Of a DNA stretch of 64,000 bases, positions 3,745 to 61,000 are shown piece after piece. Made by a program: the position numbers and the translations under genes. The notes under the pieces were generated by a model. That model made no database searches. It was not told where the DNA came from and saw only the letters and a list, made by a program, of their open reading frames with translations. This DNA is from Taxawa tesnikishii (nom. ined.) (Eukaryota > Ascomycota > Dothideomycetes > Dothideales). Positions within the stretch are counted from its first letter, which is position 1. Each line of letters begins with the position of its first letter. The DNA is taken from assembly GCA_030247885.1 (NCBI GenBank), contig JAPDRO010000015.1, positions 620,001-684,000 of the forward strand, in the 5' to 3' direction.

Positions 3745-5186
3745 ATGAAGCGCAAGCAGCCGCCATCGAAAGTCCAACCTGCAGCTAAGAAAGCACGTCC
3801 GGAGGTTCCAGAGTACCATCTAACACCCTCACTCAAGGATGAGTCCGGAGAAATTATATGGCCTGCTCCGAAAGAGCAAATGCAGCGAGCCAGAGAAACA
3901 ATACTGGAATGGCTAGTGCCCTGTCCCCATAATATTGCGTTCTATTGCTAAACCCTTGACAGCGCAAAGGCAAAGAAAAGAACTCTCATCGTTCCAGACA
4001 AGGATGCAGACGGCCTTTCATCCGGCGTGATCCTGTACCGGACACTGCAGGCACTAGGCCTTCCATCTGACTTGATCTCTGCTCATCTATTAACGAAAGG
4101 CAATACAGTACATTCGGAGAGCGAGAGTGCCAAAATGTCCGCTCAGTCACCAGCCTATATCTTCGTCTTGGACCAAGGTTCTCGTAAATCCGGACCATTA
4201 ATTCCTGAACCGCATACCGCTCTTATCGTCGACCACCATCATGCCACACCCTCGGACTTTCCCGAAGGCGCAGCATTCGTAACGGCATGCAACTCGCCAC
4301 CGGTTGCCACTTCATCACTGCTCACATACACCCTGTGCGAGCCCCTGCACCAGGACGTCGCCTCACTTTGCGACTGGCTCTGCGTAGTCGGTACGCATGG
4401 CGATCTAGGCAACACGTTGAAGTGGGAACCACCATTCCCGGACATGAAGGCAACGCTGAAGCAATATACCAAGAAACTCCTCAATGACGTGGTTTCGTAC
4501 GTCAACGCGCCCCGACGCACTGCAACCTACGATGTCGCGTCTGCCTGGTCAGCGTTACTGACCGCCACACACCCGTCTGATGTGTTGAAGCACCCGCGCC
4601 TGCTCGCCGCCAGGGAAGAAGTCAATGCTGAAGTCGAGCGATGCACCCACACAGCGCCCAAGTTCTCTCCGGACGGGAAAATCGCCGTCTTCCGCATCCG
4701 GAGCGAGGCGCAGGTTCACCCCGTCATCGCGACACGCTGGGCCGGCCACCTCAACAGCAAGGCGTTGGAAATAGTCATGGTGGCCAATGAGGGTTACTTG
4801 CCAGGTAGGGTCAACTTCTCATGCCGAATTCCACGTTGCGCAAGGAGCAGAGACCCCCGGTCAATATAATCGAGAGTTTGAAAGCGTACGCGAGTCTGAA
4901 GCCCGAGGTCGACGACGCAGACGTTGATGGTGAGGAGCGAAAGCCCCTACTGGAACGGCTGGGCGACGACTTTGCGAGGGGTCATGTTCAGGCCAGTGGA
5001 GGCATTGTGGACACAGAGCAGTTCGAAGAGCTGATGAGGTTGATGAAGATTGGAGAGAAATCGGACAAGAAAGAGAGCGAGCAAACCAGCCCAAAGAAAG
5101 GGAAGAAACCCATCGATCATGCGCAGAAAAACACTCTGATGAGCTACTTTGGGAAGAGCGGCAAGACGCCATCAGCCACTAGCTAA
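3745..5186 (+). CDS. DHH/DHHA1-family phosphoesterase (RecJ-like), one frame break
   Basis: Predicted metal-dependent phosphoesterase of the DHH superfamily, which includes RecJ exonucleases and oligonucleotide or pyrophosphate hydrolases; the substrate is not known for this fungal group. Start at 3745 (MKRKQPPSK, lysine-rich N-terminus). Exon 1 is 3745-3911. The best join uses a GC donor (3912) and an AG acceptor (3962), giving a 51-nt intron with a TGCTAAAC branch site and restoring ...ILECAKAKKRTLIVPDKDADG. The N-terminal motif PDKDADGLSSG and the signature IVDHHH (~residue 145) supply metal ligands. The C-terminal part has a DHHA1-like GHVQASGG. In the C5 run at 4854-4858 the frame slips: the protein reads into TAA after RDPRS, while the next frame continues PPVNIIESLKAY. 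One extra C gives 463 residues. The C-terminus is Lys/Ser-rich. Confidence 0.85.
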
Positions 5187-5983
5187 CGAGCCTCACTGCA
5201 CATCGAGCACCGCCCTAATCCTCCCGGAACCCAATGAGAGACTGCACCCAAAGTCTTCAACCCCTCGCCCACGAATAGTATACAACCCTGAATGGAAGCT
5301 CAAAAGCCACTGCAGCCGTTAGACAGGGACGTTTACGTGCGTACAGCGACTTGCGGAGTTGCCATGTTCTAGACCATCGTCGCCACCGCACGGATACATC
5401 CACATACAACCGAAGTGGATGTACTCGCTCTTGCAGCCTAAGAATCGGACTCGTATGGTTGTTCGCAGCATTGTGGCTTGCTACTGGCGCACTTCTCCTT
5501 CCGGATGCACCGCGGTAAGTACACATCGTCCCTAGACGTATCCTCAGCAACCAGGCTAGCGAAGGCGGTAAGACGAATAGCGTGAAGACTTCCTCCCCGT
5601 GATGAGGGGCAAGGCAGGCGATGTGCGAGTGGGGAGTCTCCTTCTGGAAGTTAGAGTACTGCAAAGAGTGAGTAACCCTTAGCCATCTGTTTGACGCACA
5701 GTTCGCGCTGCTGAGTGAACAGAAGCGAAGAGACAGAAAGTAAGGGGTATTGGAGGCGCAAGAACAAGAACGAAAGAAGGAAGATCGACGGTTGTGCAAA
5801 CCGAAGAGAGGTTCGCGCAATAATCGTAGGAAAACAAGGGCCCGTCTTACGGTGTCATAACCTTCAGCGCATTCAGTCAAGGTAGAAGGATGACACATGA
5901 CTAATGCAGTTCTCAAAAACCGGGCACACAACCAGTCATCCAGTCATTCACTCCGCATTACACATTCCATCGTTGTCCGCCAC
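5187..5983. other. Intergenic between convergent genes
   Basis: About 800 bases between the stop codons of two converging genes. A 224-residue open frame on the minus strand (5257-5931) has no domain, no homology I recognise and an irregular Arg/Ser-rich composition, so I treat it as chance. Nothing else seen; the region should hold two 3' ends. Confidence 0.5.
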
Positions 5984-7317
5984 CTACAACACCCTCCTAG
6001 GATCCAGCTGGGAGATCTTCGCACTCTTCGCCTGGCCATCAAAAACGAACTCGGAGATGAGTTTGCCAGTCCCCGGCCCATTCTGAATACCCCAACACGT
6101 ATGCCCGCTCGCCAGCAGCAAGCCCTTCGTATTCGTCAGCCCGATCAGCGGACCCCCACTCCCACTCGCGTTAACGTTGGGCAAATAGCACGCCTGTCTC
6201 GCCGTGACCTCGCCATCCCTCAACTCATCACTGATACTGCCGACATAGTCGACGATATCCTGACACCGCCGGTCATCTATGTCCACCAAGTCCGTTGATG
6301 CGGGGAGCGGAACCATATGATCGCCCTCGCCGCAGGCGTAGACTTCGTTCTTCGGGCGCGCGTAGATCTCGGGGGTGACGATCTGCTCCCCGAACGTCCG
6401 CCGTAGCCGCGCGTCTTCTTCGCCTTGCTCTCCACGTGGTCGCCGAAACCGGCGGGGAGTTTGATCTGCGTGAAGAGGGCGTAGGCGGAGACGGGGCGCG
6501 TGGGCCGGATGGTCACGCTGTGGGCTCGCAGCGCGCTGATCGGGGCGTCGGGGTAGACTTTCTGCGTCCAGGGACCGGCGGAGACGATCACGTCGGTGGC
6601 TGGGATGGTTTCCTCTTTGTTGCCGTTGTTCTTGTCCTCGTACGTCACGCTCTCGACTGCGGAGCCGTCTGCCGTGTAGTTTATGCGTTTCACGCTCGCG
6701 CCCACGCGGACGTCTGCTCCGGCTTCCTTGGCCAGGTCGGCCATGGAGGTCGTGAATTGATACGGGTGCACCTGTGCGGTTGTGGAGGGGTCGCCCATCT
6801 CGTCGTACATGCGCAGACAGTCTGCCGCCACCCAGTCGAGGTCGTCCGGTACGCCGGCCGCGCGTAGTTTCCCTATGGCTTCCTTGCTGCGCTTCTGCAG
6901 GCTTACGCTCTCGCCCACGTCTTCTTGTCCGTTCGTTGCGACGTTGTCGCCCTTGGTTGCGCGCTCGGGCACTCCGTCTACGTTCGCCCGCTCTTTCTTG
7001 GGTGGGAGGCGTCTTCCCTTGCAGTCCACCTGCCCGCAATGCACGGCGCGGTATCCCCATCTCTCGGCGCCGTCGTACTCGTCCGCCAACTCCTTGTGCA
7101 GGCGGTAGGAGAGAGGAACGATCGAGGACGGGTATGCCCAAAGAGCGAGCAAGCCGCCTGCTTTTCCTGATGCGCCGCCCGCGATTTTGCTGGCTTCGAG
7201 GAGGGTTACGCGGTGCTTTGAGGGGTTGTAGGAGGGGTGGTGGGTCAGGAAGTAGGCGGAAGTGCAGCCGATGATGCCGCCGCCGATCACGACTATATTC
7301 TTCTGTTCGTCTGCCAT
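5984..7317 (-). CDS. FAD-dependent oxidoreductase (DAO superfamily, Tda3-like), one frame break
   Basis: Flavin amine-oxidase-like (DAO fold) oxidoreductase. The nearest named relatives are yeast Tda3 and a fission-yeast protein linked to endosome-to-Golgi traffic; the substrate is unknown. Start at 7317 (MADEQKNIVVIGGGIIG): the GxGxxG dinucleotide-binding loop lies within the first 20 residues and is followed by LLEASKIAGGASGKAGG, typical of the FAD site. The C-terminal half has TPEIYARPKNEVYACGEGD and the C-terminus SQLDPRRVL, both conserved in fungal homologues as I recall them. The two halves are in different frames. Adding one base in C4 at 6388-6391 (G4 on the coding strand) joins them as one 444-residue protein. 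The alternative is a 53-nt GT-AG intron (about 6380-6432), but it lacks a pyrimidine tract and branch site. It converges with the DHH gene. Confidence 0.82.
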
Positions 7318-9715: not shown

Positions 9716-9975
9716 CCTTCGATGTAGATCATCAAATATTCTCCAGTCCAATCGAATGCATCCATCGGTCGCACTGTGAAAAACGGACATTAAGCATAGA
9801 GGTTAAACTCACGTCTTCGCTTGTCCGTCCTCCTCAGGCTTGAATCGGCCATAGCCTTAGGCTTACTCATACACTTCGGATTGACGAACCGATATCGGTG
9901 GTTCTAGAGCGACATGCCTTCCTCTCATCCTCTTCCCGAACTTGTGCATTCCCCCATCGATGCGTCTGTTTACGT

Positions 9976-12900
9976 CTACTGCATCCGATCAAACCAACCA
10001 AACACGTCTCCCACGGCCACGATGCTCCACCTTGTGCCACCGACACCAATCAACACGCCCATGACCTCGACGACCAGCAACACAGCCACACCCATCAACA
10101 TCCTGGGCATGAAGATGCGGTACAGCATGAGATGTCTCCTCAACCACGCCGCCTCGACCACTGTCGCGAGCGCTACTGCCATGTAGAACAGGACATGAGT
10201 GGCCATGGCCTGCGCCACCTGACCCAGCAAGCCCGTCTGTCTCGGTGGGATCTTCCACATCACGACCGCGGGCACGGCGAGCGCGCACAGGATCTGCGGC
10301 GCAAAAGTGTTGAGGATCACGAGCAGTGGGCTCCAGGGGTACGTGATGCTCTTGAGCGGGATGAAAGCGCTCTCCCACTGGATGGAGGCGAGGGTCGCTT
10401 GATGACCCGTCTTGAAGTAGTAGAAAGAGCCGAGGAGTGCGAGGACGGTTGGGCCCAGGGGCGAGCCGCGCAGGTCGTTGGCGTCAATGATTTCGAGCAG
10501 GTTGAGGATTGAGATGAGGCAGAGGGAAAGAGTTCCCTGGCCCATTGGTTTCTGGAGTAACAGCAGGGCGAGCGCCCAGATCGTTACGAGCAGGAAGTAG
10601 CGTGTGCCGTGCGTGTTGGCATAGCCGAGGATGATGAGCTTGGACCTGGGCTGAGGAGCGGCACGAGGCAAGGGAGTGAACACAGGAGCGGTGGGATCGG
10701 ATTCATCCAGCGATTCCGAAGCTGGGGCAGTCGCTGCTGGGGCAGGGTCGGCTGCCGCTTGCTCGACGCCGATGAATGGCGTGGCCCAGACGTAGGTAGA
10801 GTAGCCGGCTGCGTAGGCAATTGCGAGCACCACTTGAGCGATGGTCACACGCGTGCTTTTCAACGTGCTGCTGGAGACGGACGGGAACCAGTTCCCATCG
10901 TCTGCTGCATCGACCAGCCAGTAGGCAGACGAGATGAGCAAACCAATCCGGAAAGCAAAGCCAATCCAAACAACAGCTGAGCCCTGATAATTCTTTGACC
11001 TGTCGTAGAAGTCACGCACAACACTCGGAAGGAATACTGCCACCACGACAGGTATGGCCAGCTGCCATGTGGCGGACGTGGATGAGGTGGCCGAAGCGTA
11101 GTATGTCGACTTGCAGTATGGCATCTGTTCCTCGCGGCAGAGTCTGGACAACGAGGCGATGCGAGTGATGACGACAAACGAGATAGAATGCCAAGCACCA
11201 AGCAGACGTTCCTGTGGGTCGTCAAGGCGAAGGGAAGAAGCCAGCGTAAGAACGCCAATGGTACATAAAAGGTATAAGAGAAGCTCGTCCTCCCAGATGG
11301 TGAAGGAGTTGGATGCAAATCCAATGCAAAGAAGAGTAGTCGATACAACACAGATCCATCCCCACAACGTTGCGGGGATCGGTAATACAAGCCTGCGTCG
11401 GGCAGAAAACAATCCGGAAACGACGCCAGCAATGCCGCTGATTCCCGTGGAAAAGACAATGGTATGAGCGGAGGGAAGGCCTGGGATAAAGGAAAGTAGC
11501 ATGCCGATCGCGGTGCCCGTCACGGAGCCAGCCAGTCCGCGCAGCAGCAGGGTAGGCACGACATGCGTAACATCACTCGCAATGCCTCGCGCAAACATAG
11601 CGAGGACTAAGAAGCTGCTAAGCAAGAGAACAACTCCGGTAGACATGCTTGAGAGGTCGAACCGAGCCCACAGGCTCCGGCACACACGCAGGTTTTCCGC
11701 CTGATATGCGGCGAACCTGTCATAAGCGTCTTTCCACAGCCTCGCGGATGGGGCTTTGGCTTCCTGAACGAGTCGCCATGCTTCGGTAGCAGAGTTCCAA
11801 AGTGGTACAACTGGGGACGTTGCCGCGGCGTCGAAATTTCTTGCAGCCGCGTAGCGCTCCTGATAGCGACTAATTTGAGCCGCAGTCAAGCGGTTCACTT
11901 CAGCGAGGTTCTTGTAATCTTTGCCTTTGTTCCCAATGAAGGCTTCCTCAATCGGACGACCGAGGTTGTTGAAGGGAATTGGCATTCCCAGCAACAGCGA
12001 AAGCGTTGGTACAAGATCGATCTGGCCGACAGGTCTCTCCTTAGCTGTAGAGGGTGGCTCAAGCAACGTCTTGTCGCTACGCCCGAAGAGTCCTCGCTTC
12101 GAATACATCCACACAGCGGCTTGGACCTCGTCATCCGATTCTCCCCGTGGTCGCCCTTTGCGTCCATGCCATGGTCTCCCATCACAACCAGTAGCGTCTC
12201 GCCGTCGATCACCTCCATGATCCTGGTGAAGACGTCGTTCATCTGGTTCAGCTTCTCGGTCATAGCAGGATGGTCGGGTCCGTAGCGGTGTCCGGCATGG
12301 TCAACGCCCAGATAATGGCCAAAGATGACATCCCATCTACTTGCGTTGGCAGGTTCCAGGAGCGGGAAGAGGTGCTCGTTCACGCCGTTATCCACGGTAT
12401 GCAAATCCCACACGTTGAACGAGTCATAAGGACGTGTCAATTCCGGATCGAAGTAACCCGGGAAGAGCGAATGCCACGTATCATCTCCCAAATGCACAAT
12501 TCTCTTGCTCGCATTTCGCAATTGCGCCACCAAGTTATCTTCATCTATCGCCGTTCCCGCAAAATTCGATCCCGCGTCAATGAACGTGGGCAGCGTCCCG
12601 GTGGTAAGCCCCTTGAGCCGTTGTAGGGTGGTAGTAGGAGGATCCGCAATGAAGGGGAGCAGGAAAGCGTTCTGAGGTTGAGCAACAGCCGTATCCCAGA
12701 AGATAGGCAGCGAGTTGTGGAAGTGGTGAGGAGACTCTTCGGGGTGCTGTGGTTTGAACGGAACAGTAAAGTCGTAGCGGAGAGCGTCGACTATGATAAT
12801 GACCGCCTTGTCGAAAGACTTGGGGTGCCAGCAACCTCGGTCCGCTGAGCCAGGCGAGTAGCCGTTGTCAAGTGCTATAGGCGGTATGGCGCATTCTGAC

Positions 12901-23936: not shown

Positions 23937-26900
23937 TCATATCCCCTTCGCATCCTTGGCGTGAATCGTACACGGCTCCCTAGCACACCAGACCCTCCTC
24001 TCCATTCCTTCCCACAACCCCCTCCCCTCCATATCCTCCGCCCCGTCGCCACCATCTTCTTCTCCCGCAGCACCGCCCTTCCCCACTTCCGCAACTCGCA
24101 CCTCCTCGACTAGTGCTCCGACCTCGAAATCGCCCTTGGCCAACACCACGATGCCCAAGTCTGCGCTGATGGTCTGTCCCGGTTGTAGTGCTGGCAACGG
24201 ACGCTGCAACAAGCCCGTCCACATGAGGCGTTTACCAACGTCCAGCGCGGCTGCAGAGAGCTGATTACTGAGACGGGGTTGCAGGCGCAGGATACCACGG
24301 ATCGGGGTGCTTGCGCTGCGGTTACGTATGCGCGCCCGCAGGATCAGTGGAACGGCAACGGGGGCCGAGTAGCGAGCGTGGCCGAGCTGGGTTATCCCGG
24401 ACGCTGCGTGTTCACGATCTTTGTCGGCTTCGCCCTCCTCTCCATCGGTTGGGGAAGCTGAGGGGTCCGACCCCGTGATACTCAACTCGATGCTCAAATT
24501 CCTCAACCTCACCCCTTCCACCATCCTCGGAGCGAGTCGGATGCCTCGAAGCGCAATCTCGCCTTCGCGCTCGCTGTTCTCCTCCTTCCACACCCCGCGC
24601 AGCCGCTTTAGGATCGCTTCGCGGAACCAGAAGGACTCGCGGGCGGCGCGTTCGGCGGCGGGACTGAAGACATCGGTGCTGACGACGAACTGGCGCTCGT
24701 TCTTGCGCGACAGCACAGGGATGGGCGCGTGTGGGTTTGGCAGATAGAGTCGCGGGAGAAGGAGGACCAAGCGTGCGATGTGGCCAGGATGAATCACGTC
24801 GCGGACTGTGTAGGCGCGCTTCCAGTCCTCGGTGTCGGTGTCGATGTCGGTGGAGGAAGGGGAGGGAGGTTCACGCACGTCGATGGAGACGGAGAGCGGG
24901 CTTGGCCAGGCGTTGCGGATATCGAGCAGGAGAAGGTAGTGCGACTCGTCGTCCGAGGCCACGCCTACACGCTCGAGCAGCGCTTTGAAGCGACTGCCGC
25001 CTCTTTCGATCGGACGCGACAGCGAGCGGCGAGGCCGTGGTTTCTCGTCTCCGTCGGCACTGTCAAGGAGGCGTTGTCGATGCTGGTTCGACCAGGCGAA
25101 GTCGCTGGGGAAATTGGCGACGTCGACGCGGTGGAGTTGGACGCTGGCGTTGACGGTGATATCGATGGGCACGGAGACCTGACGCGTAAAAACCGACCTT
25201 CCACCTCGGAAGACGGCTTGCCCAGGCTTGCATAGTCGAACAATACCCTGGCGGCTCCCAGGCCTGGTCGGCCAACAACACTGATCTCGAACACAGCTTC
25301 CTCGCCAGGTGCGACGTCCGAGGATCCTTCTTTGTCCACCCGTCGCCATTTGAAAAGCGGATCGTGAGTCAACTGAAGTTCGAGCTCGTATGTCTCTGCC
25401 CGAGACATGTCCTTCAATGTCAGGGCGTTCCGGATCGAGGTTGACAAAGAATCCTCGAAAGAGACGTGCAAGAAGTCTACTGTGACAGATGGTGAGAGGT
25501 TACGCAGGGTAACTTGGAAGGACTTCCTTTCGCCTTCTAACACCATCAGAGCGGACTCGGATAATGCAACATCATGGACAGCTAGATGGGGCTGCGTTGC
25601 AACTACTGTCAGTGGCAGGGTGTATGGCGATGGCGGTGACTGCTGGCTGACTCGAGAACCCTTTTGCGTCTCAGAGACCGACCGACTTAAGGTTTGGATC
25701 AGCGGAATGCCAATGTTCTTCACTTGAACTGAGACATCCGAGCTCCATGCATCACGATAGACCGGGAAGAATTGCTCAGCACATCCGAAGACTTGGATGG
25801 TGCACCCCAGAACCTTCAATGGCCCTGCGGTTTTGGCCGTCGCTGTAAGAGTGGTGCTTTGCAGACGAGCTGGGCCCAGTACAATCCGGCCATGGTCCGT
25901 CGTCAACTCGATACCATCCGTGACGAGTCGGATTGAGTCAATGTTCAACTCGAGGTCGTAAGGGTTCTGCAGGGTGATGACGAAGTTTATCGATTCTCCT
26001 GCAACGACGACATTCTCCTTAGTGGCTCCCTCCGCCTTTTTGGCAAAGGCATCGTACAAGAAGGGCGTTTTGCTCTTGCGTTGAGTCGATTCGAGGTCAG
26101 ATTTGTCATGAACAACGAGTGCACCGGAGGCATCTGTTTCCGCGCACCGCAAGTCCCTCACAAGAAAATCGTCCCAGTAATTCGCCTGGATCTTTGGGAG
26201 GCCCATCTTCTGAGAAGCACTGATCATTCTGGCCATGTTGGATACCAGCCTGTTCTGCTCCTCAACCGCCAGACGGACATGCCGGCTCGAGCTGCTTGGT
26301 CCTATCGCAGTTTGCGGTCCGGCGACACGAAGAAGCAAAGCAGCAAAATCGATCACGCCAGCGGGATCAGGCAGCGCTTCGCAGAAATCAATGCAGGCTC
26401 TGAGGATGTCGATTTTGAGGTTAAGGCTGCCGAAGATCTGCGATGCTGCTGTGTTGGCAGCACTAGCAGCAATCCTGTCTATTTCGCTGTCGAGACCAAA
26501 TGAATCGTCTGAATACCCGTTCTGTTCGGAGTCGGCAGGCCCGTTGGCTTCGGGTATCGATGAAGCTTGGGCTTTTGTTTGAGCTCCATAGACGCCGTGA
26601 AGCTCTCTCAGAATGCCGCCAATGCCACTCTCTTGGTCATCCAGGAGAAGCTGACTAGATGCTGCGCCAGCTTCGCCTCCGAGTGATAGACTCGTTGCTG
26701 GATGGATGCCTGCTTCGGCGGCCCCTATCTTTCTCGCCTGCACGAGGGCTGGTACAAGGCTTGCGATCAATTCTTTCAGCACAATGGCTCTTTTCCGCTC
26801 CAGTGGCAATATTGAAAGAACGGAAGCGATACCTGCCAGAATGCTCACGTTATCGGAGAGAACAAGGTCCGGACCTGGTACAGGGTATGCTCGGAATATA

Positions 26901-28649: not shown

Positions 28650-29851
28650 CGCAACATTTGGGCGATTGAAGGAAGACAGCGTGAGATGCTGGTGATATTC
28701 AGCCTTGCGGGTTATTTGCTATGTATGCTTAGCTCTTTGTCACTGGAGAAGTGAGCCGGTAAGCTCTGAAACAGCACCGTGGCAGCGTTCGGCGCATGGC
28801 TAGCTATGTTCAATTGTTTGGAGCGGTTGTCTGTCCTGTGTGGAGTTTCCCACAGGGTAAGAGCGATGGTCACTCGAGCCGATCCGTGCATTCCTGCCGG
28901 AAGCCCAAAAAGCAAGTGTATGCGACTTGCAAGGGTTCTCCACACGATCATCACTCATCACTCACTCACATGTGTGACACGTCGAAAGGCATACGTGAAT
29001 ATTCCTGGTAAAGCCCGCTGATCGTTCAGATGTTTTATTTCCCCTTCACCGTCTACCATGCGCCTTGCCTTGCCCCTTACGAGGCGAGTATGAAACCAGC
29101 CCTCGGAAAAGGGCCCGTACGCTTCTGAGGTTACGACGTTACTCGTACAGTTTGTGTTTCATACAGCAAGCCCAAGCAAAGACTGCTATCGCTATTGCAA
29201 GAGCTTTAAAGTCCCTCGGTCTGATCGGAGCAATACTACGGCAACCATGCGCAACATAGCACCATCCAAGGCGCGGCCTACGCCGAACAGGCGACGCTCG
29301 CAGAAGATTTTTGAATCTCTTACAATGAAGTCAAGGTACGTTGTTGTCTTTTTGTCTCTTGCCATGCTCTTGCTCATTCCTCCCCTTCACTCATCCTCTT
29401 GGACGTGTACAAGGCTTGATCCATCATGTCTGTTGTAAGGCCTCTCACTTTTCCCCCAGCACTGGCCCTTCCACGCTTCGACAGCCAGTACGACCTGCAT
29501 ATGGTGCGATTCGCGTGTGCTGTGCGGTGATTCCTCCTGATGTACAGGTACCATATTGATGAATGTGTATACATATCGTGAACCCTGTCAGAAGATGTAG
29601 TGGAAAGTCTTGATGCCTTTTGTGGGACGCTGTTCTTTCACTAGACAACCCGTGAGTAGTTTTAAGATTATGGTGGGCAATTGACATGCGTCTGAGAGCA
29701 GCTGCCTCAATGCGGGACCCTGTGGGCACTCTTTCAGGCACGGGTAGGATTGCGGAATATCTCAAGAAACCCTCGATCGTGCGCAAAGCCTTGTGACGTC
29801 CTCTCACCTCCGAATTGCGTCCGGACAAGATCTTTATCCCCTACCTCTTCA
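28650..29851. promoter_or_regulatory. Divergent promoter region of TRS120 and the tuberin-like gene
   Basis: About 1.2 kb between two divergent starts. Part of it may be the tuberin N-terminus: an ATG at 29247 in a good context (GCAACCATGC) opens a basic stretch (RPTPNRRRSQKIFESL) ending in a GTACGT donor at 29336. I could not join it in frame to the main body. T-rich and CT-rich stretches lie at 29340-29400. Confidence 0.45.
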
Positions 29852-35988: not shown

Positions 35989-38078
35989 ATGGTCACCACA
36001 CGCTTGCAAGGCCCAGCCGAGGGGCTGAGCGTCGAAACAAGAAGCCACAAGACGTCAGACGATGTACACACACCCACGTTAATATCGCCGCCTGGCACAA
36101 AGACACCACCGACCGCTCCGGGCAAGCGAACGACGTCAGCTGGCAGGAGCTCGCATGGAGCGCAGCGTCATGGATCGGAACCCGTGGATGCGGATGCGTT
36201 GAGCAAGGCGCTCCATCAATTTGAAGAGGCCGGACGGAGGGAGCGCACACCAGGCGACAGCCCGAAGCGCAAGAGGCAGCGGGTGTATACGGACAGGTGA
36301 GCATCAATGCTGGCGGATGCGGAAGCGATTGGAAAGACTGAATGGAGAAACGCATGCTGAACTGCTACACGACAGGTTCATACCAAACAGGACAGGACAG
36401 GATCTCCAAGCCAGCTACAGTCTGCTCCACGAAGACGGCTCGCCAGCGACACCCTCAAGTAGACACAAGAAATCAGCGAACAACGAGCTGCATTTCCAGA
36501 AGAGTGAGTTCCATTAGCACAAACCCAATCCGCCGTTTTCTGATCCATGTCACAGCCGACGAGGCCAATCGGACCTATTCTTCGCTCTTGCGCTCAGAAA
36601 TGTTCGACAATGAGATCCCCCAGTCAATACCGCAGCACGCGGAGAATGGGTTGGCAAGAGCAAAGACACCACCTGCTAATCTCACAACTTTCCCCATACC
36701 CAACCTCACCCCTTCAACCCCGCACAAGAATCTCTTCAACTACTCCTCACCCGCTCACCTCACTCCGTCACTAACACCAAGATCTCACTCGCGGTCAGAG
36801 CGAGGACCGAACCTCAACGCCCGCTCCGAAATCTACAGCCTTTCACCAGTCAAGTACGAGTCCCAGAAGATGCTCTTATCCCCACGCAAGACGCCGAGGG
36901 CAGTCAGCAAAGTCCCGTATAAAGTGCTAGATGCGCCCGAACTTGCGGACGATTTTTACCTTAACCTGGTAGATTGGGGCTCACAGGGCGTGTTAGCAGT
37001 GGGCTTAGGGAACGCCGTTTACCTCTGGAACAGCGAATCGGGCCAGGTCAGGGAACTGTTCAAACTCCAGGATGACCACGTGACGAGCGTGAGCTGGATA
37101 CAGAGGGTGTGTCATCCCGAGCTTTTCCCCACGAAATGAGATACTGATCGATCCTCAGGGCTCGCATCTTGCGGTAGGCACTCATCGCGGCGTCGTCCAG
37201 ATCTGGGACACAATAGCATCCAGGCGTCTTAGGACGATGCTCGGACACACCGGCCGTGTCTCCTCAATGTCCTGGAACGCGCACATCCTCTCCACCGGCT
37301 CAAGGGATCGGAGCATATTACACCGCGACGTGCGATCCCCGTCCCAATACCTCACCAAGCTCACCGGCCACAAGCAAGAAGTCTGCGGTCTGCGCTGGAA
37401 CTCGGACACGGGACAACTGGCCTCTGGCGGCAACGACAACAAAGTCTTTGTATGGGAGGGCCTCGACGACCGCTGGCTGCACCGCTGGGGCGAGCAAGAA
37501 GGTGGCCACAAAGCAGCCGTCAAGGCCATTGCTTGGTCACCGCACCAACGCGGTCTCCTGGCGTCCGGAGGCGGAACCGCGGACCGGTGCATCAAGTTCT
37601 GGAACACAGTCTCCACGGCACAAAACTCGGCCAACGCCGCAATCTCCACCTCGGCATACGCGTCCACGAACCTCAACTTCGACCGCCTCAACCCCCGACC
37701 TCCCTCACCGACCCCGCCGCCACCTTCTCCCCGCCGCCCACGAACCCCCACTTGCTGAGGAGCCACGACACGGGCAGCCAGGTCTGCAACCTGATGTTCT
37801 CGAGCCTGACGAGCGAGTTGGTCAGCACGCACGGCTACTCCCAGAACGCTATCAATATCTGGAAGTACCCCAGCATGCACCAAGTCGTCAGCCTGACGGG
37901 GCACACGTACAGAGTCCTCTACCTGGCCATGAGCCCCGACGGCAACGTCATCGTCACGGGCGCGGGGGACGAAACCTTACGCTTCTGGGACGCGTTCGGC
38001 GGCAAGAAGGGCGCCGGCCCCGGGGGCGCGGGCGAGGCTAAAAGGGGCCTGGCAAGGGAAGTTGGCGTCATCAGGTGA
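35989..38078 (+). CDS. CDH1: APC/C activator Cdh1 (fizzy-related WD40 protein), one frame break
   Basis: Substrate-recruiting activator of the anaphase-promoting complex in late mitosis and G1. Exons: 35989-36296, 36376-36503, 36556-37106, 37159-38078; introns of 79, 52 and 52 nt. The C-box DRFIPNR is created across the first splice (DR|FIPNR). Proline-directed sites (TPSTPHK, LSPVKYES, LSPRKTPR) fit Cdk control. KVLDAPELADDFYLNLVDWG opens the propeller; LGHTGRVSSMSWN, LTGHKQEVCGLRWN, DTGSQVCNLMFSS and SPDGNVIVTGAGDETLRFWD mark blades. The C-terminus is the APC-binding Ile-Arg. The frame slips in C5 at 37692-37696, inside an extra ~50-residue Ser/Pro/Asn-rich insert between two blades; one added C gives 635 residues. 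The insert, and a Gly/Lys-rich stretch before the IR tail, differ from the usual form. An intron replacing the insert is the alternative, but no good donor is seen. Confidence 0.92.
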
Positions 38079-38293: not shown

Positions 38294-38336
38294 CGTTGAT
38301 GGCGTTTACTCCTGCTTTGCTTCTTTTCCTTCCTTT

Positions 38337-39026: not shown

Positions 39027-39044
39027 AAAAAAAAAAAAAAAAAA
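39027..39044. repeat. A18 homopolymer
   Basis: Eighteen A at 39027-39044 followed by GACGAA. Resembles the A17 run 380 bases upstream; neither has a transposon or target-site duplication that I can see. Confidence 0.85.
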
Positions 39045-42389: not shown

Positions 42390-42396
42390 GCGGTAG

Positions 42397-42407
42397 TGGG
42401 CTAGTGG
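42397..42407 (+). promoter_or_regulatory. RNA polymerase III A box of tRNA-Gly
   Basis: TGGGCTAGTGG in the D-arm region matches the internal A-box pattern for TFIIIC. Confidence 0.85.
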
Positions 42408-42486
42408 TTCATGCCGTTGCTTTCCCATTACTTCACAGTCATGCTCCGGCATGCTCCTAGTAACATGGACAAAGCAGAAATCGCAG

Positions 42487-42497
42487 GTTCGAACCCT
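42487..42497 (+). promoter_or_regulatory. RNA polymerase III B box of tRNA-Gly
   Basis: GGTTCGAACCC in the T arm is a perfect match to the B-box consensus. Confidence 0.9.
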
Positions 42498-42507
42498 GCC
42501 TGCCGCA

Positions 42508-43105: not shown

Positions 43106-44429
43106 TCAACCCAAGCTTACAAATGCCGGATTGTCCCCCTGCTGCACCAACATCTCACCCGCCCCAATCACCTGCTCCTCCTTTTCCTTCCTCTCCTCTC
43201 TCCCCTTCCCCTTCCCCTCCTTGTCCATTGCCGCCATGTTCTTCCGTTCCTCCTCCTGGATATGCATCATACTGCTCGAAAACTTCAACGAGCTGAGAAT
43301 CATCGTCACGCACACGGCCAAGGCCGTGATCGCGCGCTTCGTAATCACCCACCTGAGCCCCTCGACCTCGGAGCGCGAGTCCGAGTTCAGCGAAACGGTG
43401 ATGCGGTAGTTGAGCTCTTGAATCTTGCGGTCCATGTCACGTTGCTCGTTCCGAACGCCCATTTTGCGGTCGTCGAACATACCCTTCAGCTCGTCTTTCA
43501 GGTTGCCGCCTTCTTGCGTCAGGCGTTGGCCCAGGATGTCGACTTCGTGCTGCAGTTGCGTGCGCTCGCTGCGTTGGCGCTCGCTCTCTGCTTTCCGCTT
43601 CGTGGTGAGCTCGGTGCGTAGCTCGCTGCACGCGGCGCGGAAGAGGTAGGTTTCGTTCTCCACGTTGCTTCTCGACACCAGACCCTCGCGCGCTAGTTCC
43701 ATGTTCGAGGCGAGGATCAGTCGGACGGCCTTCATGATTGTGACGGCTTGGGGTTGCGTCCACCCGCCTTCTTCGAGCCGTCGGACGAGGCCGTAGGTGT
43801 CGAAGTGGTGCACATACGGTGGTGTGGAGATGTGCGGGGGCTTTTGCGCGTCGCTACCGTTCAGGGAGGCATGTGCATGGCCTTCTTCGTCGGAGTATAC
43901 GGGCGCTGTTGCTTGGGCTTGTGATTCAGATGACGGCATGTGCAGGACCGCCTCTAGCGGGTTTGTGGAGGGAGATGGGGAGATGGTGGAGGAGGGTCGG
44001 CGGGCCGCGACTCGGTTGCGTCTAGGACGGCGGCGGTTGAGGTGCCTTTAGCGGGTTTGGAGGCTGCTTCGGTCTCCTTGCTTGATCCCTTGTCCTGCTT
44101 TGTATCCTTTGCCTTCGCCTTGGGCTCGGATGAGTATGGGGACTGTGGCTCCTTCTCTTTGGGGGTGGAGGCGGTTTAGGTAGTGCCTTTGCATCTTTTG
44201 GTGCTGCATCTTTCACCTTGGGTGCGCCCATCGGTATCGCCTGTCCCCCTCCGAGATGAGGCGGAGGCTCGTTGGCGGTCCCATAGCGTTGGTTGACGGT
44301 ATTGTGCTGGTGTGCGCCGCAGGTGGCCCGAAAGCCTCTGGTTACGGTTCGAGATGCACTGCGCGAGACGGATGGCTTCGTGGAGGCGAACAGGAAGGGA
44401 TAGAGGAATGTCAAGCGCGGTGTTGACAT
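43106..44429 (-). CDS. CCDC90/MCUR1-like mitochondrial protein (DUF1640), two frame breaks
   Basis: Coiled-coil inner-membrane protein family (human MCUR1/CCDC90, yeast Fmp32), linked to the mitochondrial calcium uniporter or respiratory assembly in other species. Start at 44429 (MSTPRLTFLYPFLFASTK), where a basic, hydroxylated N-terminus (SVSRSASRTVTRGFR) looks like a matrix-targeting signal. A Pro/Lys-rich linker follows. The conserved core reads HHFDTYGLVRRLEEGGWTQP, SNMELAREGLVSRSNVENE, then a long charged coiled coil and a membrane helix (ITALAVCVTMILSSLKF) near the C-terminus. The frame changes twice, both in the linker: G5 at 44161-44165 and somewhere in 43985-43996; each needs one added base, giving 441 residues. 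Because both lie in a low-conservation linker, the exact sites are less certain than the net shift. Confidence 0.85.
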
Positions 44430-45356: not shown

Positions 45357-46642
45357 TTAGTTGCGCATGATGTCCCTGGCGTGGGCACGCTTGCTGTACG
45401 AGGATGGGCTGGCAGAGGCGGCAGCGGTGGAGGTGCTGGCGTCAGAAGCGAACATCTCGCTCAGGAGGTAGCGGAGCCACTCAATGACATCCTTGAGGGT
45501 GGCGCCAGCTGGGAGAGGCTTCTCTGGGGTGTAGCTGGTGCTGTCGGTGCTGCTTGGGGAAGCAGTGGCGGCAACGGCGGCAGCGCCGGTGACGGTGGCG
45601 GTCAGGACACTGCTCGGAAGAGCGGCGGTCAGGGATTCGATTGGGGCAACAACGGAGGAGACGGCGGCGGAGGCGGCAGCGGTGACGGTGGCGACATCCG
45701 TGGCATAGGCAACGTTGGAAGTGGTCACGACCTTGGTAACGACGGCGGAGGAGGCAATTGGGGCGGAGGTCACGGCTGCGGCACTGCTGGAAACGGCGGC
45801 GCTGGAGGAGGCAGTTGAGGAGGAGGTAACAGCGGCAGCGGAGGAAGCAGCAGCGGAGGTAGCGACACCGGTGGCAGAGGCGACACCAGTTTGGGCAGCG
45901 GTGGCGGCACCGCTATAGAGAGTTGGGCCGGGGATCTGGTAGGTGCTCAGGCTTTGGTAGATGTTGATGAGGATACCTGGGTCGTTCTCTGTGTAGAGCT
46001 TGGTACCGAGGACACCCTCCGGCTCGGCAGTACCGCTACCAGTGACCTTAAGGTTGATGCACTGAGGGTAGTTCTGCGCACCGCCGGCGGTGCCAGCAGA
46101 GTGAAGGGCGATGATCTCGTGACGAGCGACGTAGTTGCCTGGTGCAATGTCGCTTGGGATGGTAGAGGTCCAGCTGTTGTTGTTGGCAATCAGCTGGTCA
46201 GAGGCCCAGGTGCCAGGAACGGTGGTGTCGCTGACAAGTCCACCCTCGTCGATCTTGAACCACTTCAGAGTGGTTTTGTCGGCATCCTCACATTTGGCAG
46301 GGCACTTGGCAAGGTAGGTGATGACTGGGCCGTGGTGGCTGTCTGGCCAGACAGTCCACTCGAAGGCGACCTTGCCACCAGCCTTGACTGGGGCGTGGGT
46401 ACCAGCGGGGGTAGCGTTCAAGTGGCAGATGATGTCAGGGCTAGTGTAGTCGGAGACGAAACCGTTGGACAGGTCGTCAGGGACGGACCAACCGATGACG
46501 GTTGGGGAGGGCTCTGGTACTGGAAGGATGGGCTGTAACCAGTGTAGTAGGTGCCGTCAACGACAAGACCCTGGACGGTACCGTGAGCGGCAGCCGTGGC
46601 GACGAGGGAGCCTACGAGGGCAGCAGTCCGAAGGAAAGACAT
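45357..46642 (-). CDS. AA9 lytic polysaccharide monooxygenase, one frame break
   Basis: Secreted copper enzyme that oxidatively cleaves cellulose or related glucans. Start at 46642 ([19 protein letters not shown]); signal cleavage leaves His20 ([11 protein letters not shown]) as the first residue, as the histidine brace requires. The second copper His is in [13 protein letters not shown]. The distal pocket has [11 protein letters not shown] and [11 protein letters not shown] (axial Tyr). [14 protein letters not shown], the IPGPTLY region and paired cysteines complete the fold. After the ~235-residue domain comes a ~150-residue Ala/Ser/Val/Thr-rich tail with few charges, then a short helix [16 protein letters not shown] and a basic end; no CBM1. 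The frame slips in G4 at 46504-46507, just after FQYQSPP; one added C on the coding strand gives 428 residues. Expression on plant biomass is expected from the family. Confidence 0.92.
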
Positions 46643-51303: not shown

Positions 51304-52354
51304 ATGGCCGGTATGGCGCATCTGCAAAATAACCGTGCACAGCGTCAGCCCGTCACTACAGCTGCCGAAACAAACATGCCGTTCATCAATGAGCAGTCCG
51401 CCTGGGACTTCAACCAGTCTCTCACTACAGACCAAGTTGCACCGCAGATCCACGTTTCGTATCACCGGAATTCAGATCCGCAGCACTACCTGCCTCCTGA
51501 TACAAAGTATCTGCCTCCTGATACTGGCTATGGATCAGAGGATCCATTTGAAACCCACCTCTACCGTCGAGATAGCATGGAGATGCCATACTGCCAGCCC
51601 CCAACCACGGATGTGACCATGACCACCGCTCCCCTTTCAGCAATCAATACCAGCAGGACAGCTTCGAAGGCGCGGAGTATAGCGACGCACGCTACATCCC
51701 TTCCGAACAGAGCCTACAATACAGCTACCAAAGCGCCTTCAACACTCCTCCGCTGGCCAATCGCCCCTTTGGCACCCTGGAGCCTATCACTGGCCACAGC
51801 AACACGAGCTACATGCGAAGCACCGCGTATCGAAATCCTCTATTTCCTCCTGGGGAGAGCAACAGCAACAGCCACCTCAACAGCTCAGTGCTCAACGACC
51901 CCGCCGCCCTGGCGGTCCTAAACGCACCGTGACTTCCGACTCCGCGGAGAGCGACAGCGCCATCACAGACGATGTTCTGCATACCGCTCGCGGCGAAGGT
52001 GTGCGCAGCAATAGCAATACCAGCAACAGCCGCCGCAACAAACAACGCCTTCCGCATACCGCCGTCGAGCGCAGGTATAGAGAGAACCTAAACATGCATC
52101 TTGACAAGCTGCGGCTGGCGGTGCCGAACCTGCAGTCTGCGCAGGCCAGGCGTAAGACAGATCCAGGCGTTGTAGGGCTCGGAGAAGAGAGTAATGGTAG
52201 TGGAAGTACTGCGCAGGGTGATCAACAAAAGCCGAGCAAGTGTGAGATCCTCATCGGCGCGGTTGAGTATATCAAGCAGATGGAGACGGAAAACCAGAAG
52301 TTGAGGAAAGAGGTGCAGTGGTTAAGGTCGAAGGGTGGGAAGGAGTCCTCCTGA
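51304..52354 (+). CDS. bHLH transcription factor with SREBP-type tyrosine, two frame breaks
   Basis: DNA-binding regulator. The C-terminal bHLH (from ~51990) reads RLPHTAVERRYRENLNMHLD, KLRLAVPNLQS, a ~45-residue Gly/Ser-rich loop, then KCEILIGAVEYIKQMETENQ and a short leucine-zipper-like extension. The Tyr in ERRYREN in place of the usual Arg is the SREBP-family hallmark and allows sterol-response-element as well as E-box binding. The N-terminal 200 residues are Gln/Pro/Tyr-rich. No membrane segment follows, so it is not a membrane-tethered SREBP. The frame slips in C4 at 51631-51634 and in G4 at 51852-51855; between them the protein reads YQQDSFEGAEYSDARYI and so on. Two added bases give 350 residues. 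The start could lie further upstream if there is an unseen 5' exon. Confidence 0.85.
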
Positions 52355-52890: not shown

Positions 52891-54545
52891 ATGGGCAAGA
52901 TCCAACACAGGCTGCCTCCTGCGTTCGCACTATCCGACAACAACATCAGGCTCATCAAGTCCTGGATCTCAGGCTGTGAAGGTCATCTTGCCTGCCAAGC
53001 TAGGAATGACGCCACAATGCCATCAAGACGGATCCATATCAAACCGGATGGTGGAAAACCAGCGCCATGTCTTTATCTGGATGGAGGGTGTCAACACCAG
53101 TATGTTGTATTGCCCCACTGCTGGGGCATGACACCATTTTGTAAGACGACAAAACACTATTTCCACGATAGCCTCCACTGCATTCCTTGGGATGGGCTGC
53201 CTCTGAACTTCCAGGATGCGATACGTGTCACCAGGGCTCTGGACATTTAGTTTCTATGGATCGACGCATTGTGTGTCGTGCAAGACTCTACCTCCGACTG
53301 GGAATTTGAATCTGCAAAGATGCACGACGCTTACAAGAACGCTTACAAGAACGCTTACCTGACAATTGCGGCAACCTCAGCTGTGACGGCTCATGACGGC
53401 TTTCTGAATCGCCAAAGAGTCTCTCCCCACTCAGGATACCATATCTGTGGAGCTCATGTTGCCAAGACAGTTTTCATCATCACGTTGGAACTTCTGTATG
53501 GAATAAAAGGGCCTGGACCTTGCAGGAGTGGGTCCTAACAAGGAGAGTGCTTCACTTCGCCGAAGACACTTTGTACTTTGAATGCCCACAGGCATTGTAC
53601 TCAGAAAGAAAACACATAGCCTCATCCGGAGCGATGGTGGCCTGGCCGACACCTTTCGGACTTCCGCTTACCGCGCCTCCCGTTGACCAAGACAATGATG
53701 AGATTACTCCTAACAATACTGCAGAGCATCGACAAGGATACACTGTGGCATGATACAAACGCATCCACGGTTCGTCTGCTGGAGTACGTAGACGCAGACC
53801 GACTGGCGTTAACAATAACCACAAACAGTATTGGTACGACGAGTGGCTAAATCTTGTCGAAGACTACTCGGATCAGGATCTGACTTTGACGAGCGACAAG
53901 TTACCAGCAATATCCGGGGTTGCGCACCAACTGCAAAGCATCCTTGGCAACGCGTACATTGCTGGGTTATGGGAAGACGACCTTATCCGGAGCCTGATAT
54001 GGGCCGCCATGCGATCAACCCGTAGAACACAATCCTACTGCGCACCGAGCTGGTCCTGGACCTCCATGGATGGAGGGATCCGGTTCGAAGTTCGGACGAG
54101 CAGCGACCAGAAACATTGCCAGATCGTAGATGCATCTGTGTCAGTCTCTGGCGTTGATCGTATGGGAGCAGTCACGGCAGGACATCTCCGGTTAGTGGGC
54201 CGGATTGCACGCGCATTCTCCATGACGGCGCCAGATGCTAAAGCAGTGGATGCGAATAAGGTCATTCTAGTTCCAGACAATTGTCTTGTCGCCGAAGGCT
54301 TTCTCGACCACACCGACGCAGGCCGGAATGCTCAGCTTTATATATTACTACTTCGGTCTGGTAGCGACATCTGTAGCCCTCCAGACCAATGGAAAAGGAA
54401 GGGCTACGGCATTGTCTTAGAAGAAGTGCGTAATGGCGAGTATCGCCGTATAGGGGCGTTCTCTCCATACCTTCCCTCGGGGAACATCGGAGGACCTGAT
54501 GACCCTTTCAAAGGTTGCGAGGACCAAGAATTGACCATCATATGA
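52891..54545 (+). pseudogene. HET-domain (heterokaryon incompatibility) gene, in-frame stop and frame break
   Basis: HET proteins trigger self/non-self responses between fungal strains; this copy looks damaged. HET motifs are in order: YVVLPHCWG, the central IPWDGLPLNFQDAIRVTRAL, FLWIDALCVVQD, and YLTIAATSAVTAHDGFL. An in-frame TAG at 53248-53250 separates RVTRALDI from FLWIDALC; homologues have Gln or Arg there. The frame then slips in T4 at 53471-53474 (SVWNKRAWTLQEWVL is in the next frame). A TGA at 53751 is probably avoided by an 84-nt intron (53745-53828, GTGGCA...CACAAACAG). The tail has YDEWLNLVEDYSDQDLTLTS, SDKLPAISGVA and APSWSWTSMDGG, all typical. The TAG is a substitution and not a length error, so degradation is plausible. 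The start at 52891 is provisional. Confidence 0.8.
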
Positions 54546-54776
54546 CGCCACAAGGAAACACGTTGGTTTCACGCTGGCTTTCTCCCGGTCCGGGATGCTT
54601 GCGGACAGATCGTGCTGTTCAATAAAGATAAGTCCGTTCAATATCTAAGCAGACGCCAGAACTCCTCGCTTTCATTCATCCAATCTTGTCTCAAACGTCT
54701 CAATCCCACACCAGACCCAAGGAACCCATATCTAGAGCCTCGATACCGTCCTCTCATACCATAACCGCCATCCCTG

Positions 54777-58059: not shown

Positions 58060-61000
58060 CTAGCTCCCGAAGTTCATCTTCAGCGCTATCGTGGGTTCCC
58101 GATCTTCGCTCGTGTTGGTCCTCGATATTGGCTTCGGACCTTGGCCTTGTCTAATGATTTTCTCCATGAACGTTCGTTGCTCTGTGTCCATTCTGCCAAC
58201 GATAGTCCTGAAAGCGGACTGATCAGCACCGGCTAAGTCGATCAAACGTGCAGCTGTCTCTGCGTGCGTCTTCTCCCCTTCTTTGGCCGCTCTGCTGAGT
58301 AAGGTCGGGACCGCAAGGGCCAAAGCGGCAGACTTCTGTTGCTCTGGTAGGCCCCGGGCAAAGTCGACGAGTGTTTGCGAGAGGATTCCCTGCTCTCATT
58401 TGTTCCTTCCAGCTCCGCAGGATTGGCAAGAAAGGGGACGAAGCGTGGAAGAAGCCGAGCAGCGACAGCCGCTTGCAGACCAGACTTGCTGGAAATTCGC
58501 ATGAGCGACCTCGCACAACCCGCAGCCATCTGAGTCGTCATCCGATTATCGAGACAATCGGCAAGCTCAACGGTGAATTGCGTCAGTAACGGATCGTCGG
58601 GAGAAAGGGCGTTGTTTGATGAGGTTATGAGGATAGTACTGGCTAATATGGTATTTTTCTCGCAGGGTACTGAGGCCTCCGACTCGCGTTTCTGAGCATT
58701 CTTGAGGATCGCAAGGAACCTGGAAAGTGTGCCGCGCACTTGCTTGCGGGTCTCCGAGTGTGGATCTGACGTGATGTTGCTGACGAAACGCCTGAATATA
58801 GGCAAAGCTTGCGGCACGACTGCAGCTTGACATGAGCCCGTGCCTAAAACGGTTACGAAGATGTGGAAGATGCAAGCGTGCAAATCAGTCTTGATGATTG
58901 AAGGGAAGACCTCTGCAGCTTCGACCAGGGCGTTGAGAGAGAGGCTTGCAAGAGTGACGGCCTCGTCAGAGATCTCTACGCGGGCTAATAACAGATGTCA
59001 GCGCGATCGTGGTTTAGTGCGAACAATAGACTTACTCGGCCGGTTGCTCTCTGCAAGGCCGGGTATAATGCCAGCCAGTACCAAAACGATGATGCGAGTC
59101 AACTCGAAGAGCTGGTCGATATCGTCGGAGAGATTCTCTTCATTCGTTGGAGACCTATGCAACCGTCAGTGAGGGAATAAAAACAGTCGTAGAATCCTTA
59201 CTCCACTCCTTGTCTCGAAGAAGGATGACCGATGCACAGGTTCCTCGCAATATCCACGATGACAGTTTTTACATCCGTTCCCTCTGTAAGAACCATTCGA
59301 TCCAGCAGATCCATTGTTTCAGTAAAGATCACTTCCTGATAGATGGCGTTGCCAGAGACCGAGGGCCGCAGGATTTTCTTGAGTGCCAACAGTATTTCTA
59401 GTGTACGTCCTGCGCCTAAGGCGGCATCATTGCCAGAGCGTGCCACTAATGCCTCAAACGCTAGACCGAACAGAACGAAAAAGAACGCAACAGGCTCTTC
59501 CCGATAGTTGATATGGGAATCCCGGCGAGTGACGTCTCCGTTAGATGCTGGTTCGTCGAGTTTGCCATCAAGTGCGTCGAACACGAATTCACTATCTTCA
59601 TCGATAAGACTAGCAATTGCATCAACAAGGTTGAGCCACGAGTCTTGGTAGAACTAGGGAAAGTTAGTCACATGTAAAGACGCTCATCAAGGATTTACTT
59701 GCCTTTAGCAGAGTCTGTCTGTTGAGTGCAGCATATACCATTTCAAGATTGCCAGAGAGAGGAGTTGTGCCTGAATTCGTAGAGATATCAGGCTCGAACC
59801 GTAAGCGAGCATACTCTCTCAAGGACGAGAGCCAAAGAGGGGTCAGCCTGGCTACGTGCGGTTTCACAACAGCAACCAGATATTGTTGTTCGGCTGTGGC
59901 GATCTGCAGCCCTGCCCATGCGGAGAAAACTGCCATGCGCACCATGACCTGAGCATTCGAGCTTAGGCCTTTCAGCTCACCGATAGAGGTCGACTCTGAA
60001 GTGCCTGCAACTGTCAGTGCGTTTCCCAACCAGACTATTATGACGTACTTGAGAAGTTGTCCAAAGCAGAAACGAGGAGTTTGAGGATGCGGCCCATGCG
60101 ATCCACGTCCTTCACAATACCCGTCGAAATAAAAGTAGCACAAACGTTGATAGCTTCTGCAGCAAGCTCCGGGGACGAATCCGCAGCGAACGCTGGTGTG
60201 AGCGCTGAGCTGATCTGGGCTTGATATTGTTCCAGAAGCATAGCATCGGCGAAATCGGGATCGGGCATACTTCCAAACATCTATAGTAGGCGTCAGCTGG
60301 GCACTGTATCTGGGCCTGCGAGCCTTACCTTCAAGACCAGATCTATGATACGCATGCCGCGAGTTCGAAGGCCAACCACACCTGCAGTCGATGCTGAGAA
60401 GGCAATGCGTACAACGTCTGCCACTCGGTGCTGGAGAGATGCCAGAGCGGGGACTCATCGTTGCCAGCGGCATCCTTAGCTACCATATTCAGAAGCGCCG
60501 TCAACATATCCATAGCAAACAAGCGGACCTGCCAGCGCATAAGTTCTTGGCTTGATGTAGGAGCAGAAGCGTCGTCTTCTTTAGCGCCGGCAGCGGCAGC
60601 AAAGCCTGCGACTTCGTCGTCTTGCATGTCAGGTAGGGCTGTGGTTTTAGTGGCAGCAATCTTAGGCGCGGTTTCCATACGCGCTTTCGACTTAGTGAGA
60701 ACTGTGTTACACCTCTGTATCCATTGCGCTGTATTAGAGAGGCCGGTCTGGTCAAGCCAAGTTGAGAAGATGTTTTTATGGTGCGTTGTTCAGGCTGCTC
60801 ATCAAGGAGATCCCATAGCCGCTCCTCGAGACCTGGTTTAGCCACCCGGATGATATCTTCTGCGTCTCGCCGCATGATGTTGGATAACCCATCAACGGCC
60901 ACGGCTTGGATATCCGGAGATGAAGCATCAAGATCGGACTGCAAGCTCTGAACATATTGTTGGAACTCCATATGGCCGGGTGCGTATAGGGAAAGGTTTG

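What the first reader, a model, noticed from the sequence alone, without database searches (positions are those of the whole stretch)
4854..60777. Eighteen one-base losses, all the same sign, mostly in short homopolymers
Hand reading finds conserved proteins continuing in a new frame at 4854-4858, 6388-6391, 12143-12146, 25188-25192, 30687-30689, 31028-31031, 31390-31394, 31781-31784, 37692-37696, 43985-43996, 44161-44165, 46504-46507, 51631-51634, 51852-51855, 53471-53474, 58388-58390, 60449-60452 and 60773-60777. Every one needs exactly one added base; none needs a removal. Adding them makes the coding lengths of all ten complete genes divisible by three. Housekeeping genes are hit, so gene decay is unlikely. 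The best explanation is uncorrected homopolymer deletions; gene predictors will have split these genes or invented introns. Genuine genome-wide frameshifting is the exotic alternative.
Basis: partly seen in the sequence, partly recalled or inferred. Interest (0 to 1): 0.75.

Follow-up and report, generated by a model that had tools for sequence, protein, structure and literature searches.

The report
Homopolymer run-length errors in fungal assembly
Many genes in this fungal genome appear broken by a missing letter, almost certainly because the sequencing miscounted runs of identical letters, so this is a quality warning about the assembly and not new biology.

Summary
The window lies in a 29.4-Mb, 34-contig assembly, a filamentous ascomycete by gene content (inferred). 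Five are not (43985, 44161, 51852, 53471, 60449). All 13 fit a one-base loss.

The pattern is genome-wide. A blind scan of the window plus 200 kb elsewhere called 42 losses and 5 gains in 139.9 kb of coding sequence. Planted losses and gains were recovered about equally (226 and 217 of 250). Of 41 localizable losses, 28 contain a run of four or more identical bases, against 10.8 expected. Slippery heptamers are not enriched (2 of 41, 1.1 expected).

Duplicated mitochondrial contigs in the same assembly disagree in run length, and one of two copies of a tRNA gene lacks a base. That shows such errors in this assembly, though not at the nuclear sites themselves. An uncorrected long-read consensus explains the pattern; a nanopore-only fungal assembly is reported with the same kind of fault (PMC7500977). 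Raw reads would settle it.

The parts
4854..4858 (+). frame change (loss type) at a C run near the 3' part of a DHH-domain gene
   Evidence: model gain 5.0 nats; the free scan placed the loss at 4820; DHH domain upstream, Pfam 7.2e-07
6388..6391 (-). frame change (loss type) at a C run in a DAO-family FAD oxidoreductase gene
   Evidence: model gain 13.8; DAO profile 2-236 in one frame, 254-352 in the next; about 71 nt excess between them, so the profile alone does not exclude an intron
12143..12146 (-). frame change (loss type) at a C run in a phosphodiesterase-domain gene resembling GPI ethanolamine phosphate transferase (name recalled)
   Evidence: model gain 19.7; Phosphodiest domain upstream; no useful PDB relative
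25188..25192 (-). frame change (loss type) at an A run in a TRAPPC9/Trs120 gene
   Evidence: profile position 949 at 25190-25192 in the first frame, 948 at 25194-25196 in the second: no room for an intron; model gain 10.9
30687..30689 (+). frame change (loss type) in a tuberin-like gene
   Evidence: DUF3384 profile 223 at 30665-30667, 230 at 30700-30702, 14 nt more than the profile gap; read-through with X gives one DUF3384 stretch, profile 1-472 of 473; model gain 0
31028..31031 (+). frame change (loss type) at an A run, same tuberin-like gene
   Evidence: crossed by the DUF3384 read-through match; model gain 7.5
31390..31394 (+). frame change (loss type) at a C run, same gene
   Evidence: model gain 8.8; the DUF3384 match runs only about 10 residues past it
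31781..31784 (+). frame change (loss type) at a C run, same gene
   Evidence: model gain 14.6; Tuberin and Rap_GAP domains downstream in the new frame
37692..37696 (+). probable frame change (loss type) at a C run in a Cdc20/Cdh1-like gene
   Evidence: model gain 10.1; WD40_CDC20-Fz profile ends at 213 in one frame and restarts at 213 in the next, about 128-131 nt excess
43985..43996 (-). claimed frame change, not supported
   Evidence: no model gain; not a homopolymer; no domain across it
44161..44165 (-). claimed frame change, not supported
   Evidence: no model gain; no domain
46504..46507 (-). frame change (loss type) at a G run in an AA9 (LPMO) gene
   Evidence: PDB 7ova residues 24 and 29 lie 14 nt apart where 15 are needed (worked out from the alignments; the upstream match is short, E 0.0045); model gain 12.4
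51631..51634 (+). probable frame change (loss type) in the N-terminal part of a bHLH gene
   Evidence: model gain 6.2; the free scan prefers 51575-51617
51852..51855 (+). claimed frame change, not supported
   Evidence: no model gain; HLH domain lies downstream only
53471..53474 (+). claimed frame change in a HET-domain gene, not supported
   Evidence: HET profile 49-102 upstream, nothing in the next frame; no model gain; the free scan calls a loss at 53753 instead
58388..58390 (-). frame change (loss type) in a LAA1/HEATR5-like gene
   Evidence: TPR_LAA1_C profile 69 at 58389-58391 and 71 at 58384-58386, two bases for one residue; model gain 0
60449..60452 (-). claimed frame change, same gene, not supported
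   Evidence: no model gain; the model prefers introns further downstream, e.g. 60281-60381
60773..60777 (-). probable frame change (loss type) at a T run, same gene
   Evidence: model gain 6.7; free-scan interval 60687-60776

Best explanation
The frame changes are consensus errors of the assembly. The sequencing under-counted runs of identical bases, and sometimes other bases, and the consensus was not corrected with accurate reads, so many intact genes read as if one base were lost. The source is most likely long-read-only data, nanopore-like (platform inferred). Shown: the frame changes, their sign bias, the homopolymer enrichment, the spread beyond the window, and run-length disagreement between duplicate mitochondrial copies inside the assembly. 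Inferred: the platform, that the nuclear sites have the same cause as the mitochondrial disagreements, and that the living genome has intact genes.
For: 42 losses against 5 gains in 139.9 kb of coding DNA (one-sided binomial 1.2e-8), with near-equal sensitivity to both signs (226 and 217 of 250 planted). 28 of 41 localized losses hold a run of 4 or more (10.8 expected, 0 of 2000 random sets reach it); outside the window 17 of 26 (6.7 expected, 0 of 2000). Runs of 6 or more in coding DNA: 4 observed, about 33 extrapolated from lengths 3-5. Copies of mitochondrial contigs in the same assembly (C26/C28, and inverted copies in C25) differ by 12 one-base differences in runs of 4 to 8 over 17,515 aligned columns. 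One of two copies of a mitochondrial tRNA gene lacks a base. For a nanopore-only fungal assembly the authors report that most errors were homopolymer indels that alter reading frames (PMC7500977, passages).
Against: No raw reads or RNA were available. Five gains were called elsewhere. In one mitochondrial pair the copy with the longer T run appears to be the frame-broken one (positions worked out by hand), so errors are not only losses. 13 of 41 localized losses hold no run of 4 or more. On E. coli K-12 the same model made 12 calls in 81 kb of coding sequence, 9 losses and 3 gains: 11 within 64 nt of an annotated gene end, one loss internal. So the control also leans to losses, and some fungal calls may be false. 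Runs of 6 or more are not clearly short outside coding DNA: nuclear noncoding 40 against about 62, window noncoding 19 against about 20, mitochondrial C26 86 against about 79, E. coli 82 against about 113; the coding shortage could be selection. Seven of the 18 listed sites gained nothing in the model. The tRNA loss is not in a homopolymer, and mitochondrial differences could in part be heteroplasmy.
Confidence: 0.93

Rival explanations
1. Genuine genome-wide minus-one recoding: ribosomes or RNA polymerase slip back one base at these runs, or an RNA-editing system inserts the base, so the genome really lacks it.
For: All supported window sites fit one sign and conserved genes are hit. Transcriptional slippage at homopolymers would also give homopolymer enrichment.
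Against: Slippery heptamers on the gene strand in only 2 of 41 loss intervals (1.1 expected; 4 against 3.4 for a looser pattern). Run identity varies (C, G, A, T). Mitochondrial copies in the same assembly disagree, and a tRNA gene copy is affected, which no translational mechanism needs; this shows errors in the assembly but does not test the nuclear sites.
Confidence: 0.015
2. Real mutations: pseudogene decay in the sequenced strain.
For: One-base losses in homopolymers are common natural mutations (general knowledge); one gene (53251-53750) carries a HET domain, a fast-evolving kind (recalled).
Against: Four supported hits in one tuberin-like gene and hits in TRAPPC9-, Cdh1- and LAA1-like genes, at about 0.3 calls per kb of coding DNA, with domains otherwise conserved. 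Decay should also leave in-frame stops, which were not tallied here.
Confidence: 0.03
3. Some frame changes are ordinary or non-consensus introns and misread exon ends.
For: The model finds 77 introns in the sampled DNA. Five listed sites are unsupported, and around 60449 the model prefers introns. At 37692 and 6388 the profile leaves room for an intron.
Against: At 25188, 58388, 46504 and 30687 the homology leaves 14 nt or less. Missed introns should give both signs (inference), not 42 to 5.
Confidence: 0.02

Closest known systems
Nanopore-only assemblies of the fungus Drechmeria coniospora (PMC7500977; passages seen)
   Same: Fungal genomes in which the authors found most errors in homopolymers, with indels altering reading frames; of the conserved genes checked, the share predicted full-length is given as below about one-sixth (the start of that sentence was cut off in the passage). 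Their assembler gave the mitochondrial genome as a contig with tandem duplication.
   Different: There polishing introduced more insertions than deletions; here loss calls predominate 42 to 5, and the mitochondrial duplicates in contig 25 are inverted.
Residual errors of long-read bacterial and small-genome assemblies (PMC8812927, PMC9262707, PMC12007338; starts of abstracts seen in the search listing)
   Same: Same error class: homopolymer-length errors, and frameshifts that fragment genes.
   Different: Not this organism; no direct comparison of rates was made.
Euplotes +1 frameshifting and Physarum insertional editing (recalled, no call)
   Same: Genome-wide mismatch between genomic frame and protein.
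   Different: Euplotes needs the opposite sign and acts at stop codons; Physarum editing is mitochondrial and acts on transcripts (all recalled).

Membership tests
Uncorrected long-read consensus errors | frame changes concentrated at homopolymers | tested here: met
   28 of 41 against 10.8 expected
Uncorrected long-read consensus errors | sign bias not caused by the detector | tested here: met
   42 losses, 5 gains; planted 226 and 217 of 250 found; E. coli control 9 losses, 3 gains, 11 of the 12 near gene ends
Uncorrected long-read consensus errors | spread over the genome, not one locus | tested here: met
   27 losses and 5 gains in the 20 stretches outside the window
Uncorrected long-read consensus errors | copies of the same DNA in the assembly disagree in run length | tested here: met
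   12 differences in runs of 4 to 8 between mitochondrial copies; no nuclear duplicate of 29800-34100
Uncorrected long-read consensus errors | noncoding sequence affected too | tested here: inconclusive
   one of two mitochondrial tRNA gene copies lacks a base; 14 of 47 nuclear 5S copies were read and are uninformative; nuclear noncoding run spectrum shows no clear shortage
Uncorrected long-read consensus errors | raw or short reads support the missing base | not testable with these tools
   no reads held
Programmed -1 ribosomal frameshifting | slippery heptamer X XXY YYZ at the sites | tested here: not met
   2 of 41 intervals on the gene strand, 1.1 expected
Programmed -1 ribosomal frameshifting | restricted to translated sequence | tested here: inconclusive
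   a mitochondrial tRNA copy is affected, but nuclear noncoding DNA gave no clear answer
Insertional RNA editing | base present in cDNA and absent in genomic DNA | not testable with these tools
   no RNA held

The most novel reading that the evidence does not exclude
A fungus whose nuclear genes really lack about one base per few kilobases, with the frame recovered by genome-wide transcriptional slippage or insertional editing at homopolymers.
Probability: 0.015. Interest if true: 0.95.

Novelty: not a real feature. Interest (0 to 1): 0.1.

Why it matters
Gene models built on this assembly will be split, truncated or given false introns at roughly 0.3 called sites per kb of coding DNA (42 in 139.9 kb). 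Counts of pseudogenes, short proteins or odd introns from it should not be used without polishing. The mitochondrial copies offer a way to measure the error inside the assembly itself.

Tried and rejected
Second nuclear copy of the tuberin-like gene as an internal control: none. Small-subunit rRNA as a noncoding control: the search never gave an answer. 5S rRNA copies: 47 matches listed, 44 of them 120 nt long; 14 were read; they differ by substitutions, and the single 119-nt copy is diverged, so they say nothing. Sugar-transporter family for a genome-wide count by profile: only 9 places scored of 323 candidates, too few. PDB relatives of the phosphodiesterase-domain gene: none useful. First versions of the model under-called coding sequence or lacked splice signals; their counts are not used. 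The first slippery-site count (2 against 0.9) looked at the + strand only, whatever the gene's strand; it is replaced. E. coli K-12 as a clean control is imperfect because its genes overlap. The no-change arm (0 of 250) excluded ground near existing calls, so it is weak evidence on false positives. Rows set aside in the mitochondrial count: 11 gap openings in one cluster (L035 2586-2633), the tRNA base, one single-G gap, and all substitutions; two of the 12 kept differences (L030 404 and 407) are adjacent and of opposite sense. Naming the organism by a size search in papers failed.
Full report
What was checked. The window is bases 620001-684000 of contig 7 in a 29,367,862-base, 34-contig assembly. 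No call named the organism; the gene content (tuberin-, TRAPPC9-, Cdh1-, LAA1-like proteins, AA9, HET, short GT-AG introns) points to a filamentous ascomycete (inference). I tested the 18 sites with pieces of the two frames kept apart, with one read-through search joined by X, and with a two-strand Viterbi model of coding, introns and background, with equal prior cost for a lost and a gained base, trained on the window plus 20 stretches of 10 kb from elsewhere in the genome.

Homology. At 25188 the TRAPPC9-Trs120 profile reaches position 949 at 25190-25192 in the first frame and starts at position 948 at 25194-25196 in the second. At 58388 the LAA1 C-terminal profile passes from 69 to 71 with two bases between the matched codons. 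At 46504 residues 24 and 29 of PDB 7ova fall 14 bases apart (worked out; the upstream match is short, E 0.0045). At 30687 DUF3384 positions 223 and 230 are separated by 32 bases. None of these leaves room for an intron. A read-through of the tuberin-like gene, X at each junction, matches DUF3384 in one stretch, profile 1-472 of 473 at 159.6 bits, against 111.1 and 21.7 bits for the first two pieces. This crosses 30687, 31028 and, by about ten residues only, 31390. For 4854, 12143, 31781, 51631 and 60773 there is no homology across the junction, and for 6388 and 37692 the profile leaves room for an intron, so these seven rest on coding statistics.

Coding statistics. Allowed only within 6 nt of the 18 sites, losses raise the log-likelihood by 114.3 nats and are used at 11 sites. 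Gains at the same places raise it by 30.4. Sixty sets of 18 random coding spots gave a mean of 7.0 and a maximum of 31.7. Sites 30687, 43985, 44161, 51852, 53471, 58388 and 60449 gained nothing; two of these are shown by homology, so five remain unsupported.

Beyond the window. The free scan called 42 losses and 5 gains in 139.9 kb of coding DNA: 15 and 0 in the window (34.2 kb coding) and 27 and 5 in the other 20 stretches (105.7 kb). Planted errors: 226 of 250 losses and 217 of 250 gains were recovered with the right sign, so the bias is not the detector's. As a further control the same model on 100 kb of E. coli K-12 made 12 calls in 81 kb of coding sequence, 9 losses and 3 gains. Eleven were within 64 nt of an annotated gene end, where bacterial genes often overlap; they include one gain in prfB, annotated as joined from two pieces and known (recalled) to use a +1 shift. 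One loss was internal. The control therefore leans to losses too, and some fungal calls may be false; overlapping neighbour genes are not expected to be common in a fungus (general knowledge).

Homopolymers. One loss could not be localized. Of the other 41, 28 intervals hold a run of 4 or more (10.8 expected) and 10 a run of 5 or more (1.8 expected); no random set of 2000 reached either. Outside the window it is 17 of 26 (6.7 expected). The scan has no term for homopolymers. Runs of six or more are nearly absent from coding DNA (4 seen, about 33 if the fall from 3 to 5 continued), but outside coding DNA the shortage is not clear: nuclear noncoding 40 against about 62, window noncoding 19 against about 20, mitochondrial contig 26 86 against about 79, E. 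coli K-12 82 against about 113. The extrapolation is a crude null and selection could explain the coding part, so I give this little weight.

Internal duplicates. The assembly holds mitochondrial DNA several times: contigs 26 and 28 are 99.43% identical over the 10 kb compared, and contig 25 contains inverted copies of parts of itself. These copies differ by 12 one-base differences in runs of 4 to 8 over 17,515 aligned columns, besides clustered substitutions and one cluster of gaps. One of two copies of a tRNA gene lacks one base, not in a run, and its score falls from 62.6 to 57.2 bits. In one nad-type gene the copy with the longer T run appears to be the frame-broken one, so gains also occur. 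Heteroplasmy is possible in principle. These copies show that this assembly contains run-length errors; they do not test the nuclear sites directly.

Interpretation. Programmed -1 frameshifting would be expected to show slippery heptamers; on the gene strand they occur in 2 of 41 intervals (1.1 expected). Uncorrected run-length errors in a long-read consensus explain sign, context, spread and the copy disagreements together. The same kind of fault is described for nanopore-only assemblies of another fungus (PMC7500977, passages only), and homopolymer-length errors are called the commonest residual error of long-read-only bacterial assemblies (PMC8812927, start of abstract). What is not shown is the platform, and the true base counts, which need reads.

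Noticed in passing
G000 contigs C25, C26, C28 (L029-L037): Two mitochondrial genome types, 72 to 88% identical in the regions compared, lie in one assembly, suggesting two fungi or a contaminant.
   Followed up: partly
L035 2576-2643 and 7964-8602; L029 1276-1407 and 2385-2400; L030 2642-2693: Clustered substitutions between otherwise near-identical mitochondrial copies look like patches, perhaps mis-polishing from the other mitochondrial type.
   Followed up: no
G000 contig C25: Parts of the contig recur in inverted order (mirrored tRNA and nad hits), as fold-back or circular assembly artefacts do.
   Followed up: partly
window 42390-42507: tRNA gene found by Rfam (46.9 bits), 118 nt long, probably intron-bearing; ARAGORN in bacterial mode reported none.
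   Followed up: no
   Followed up: partly
L038-L051: Dispersed 5S rRNA copies fall into clearly different sequence types within one genome.
   Followed up: no
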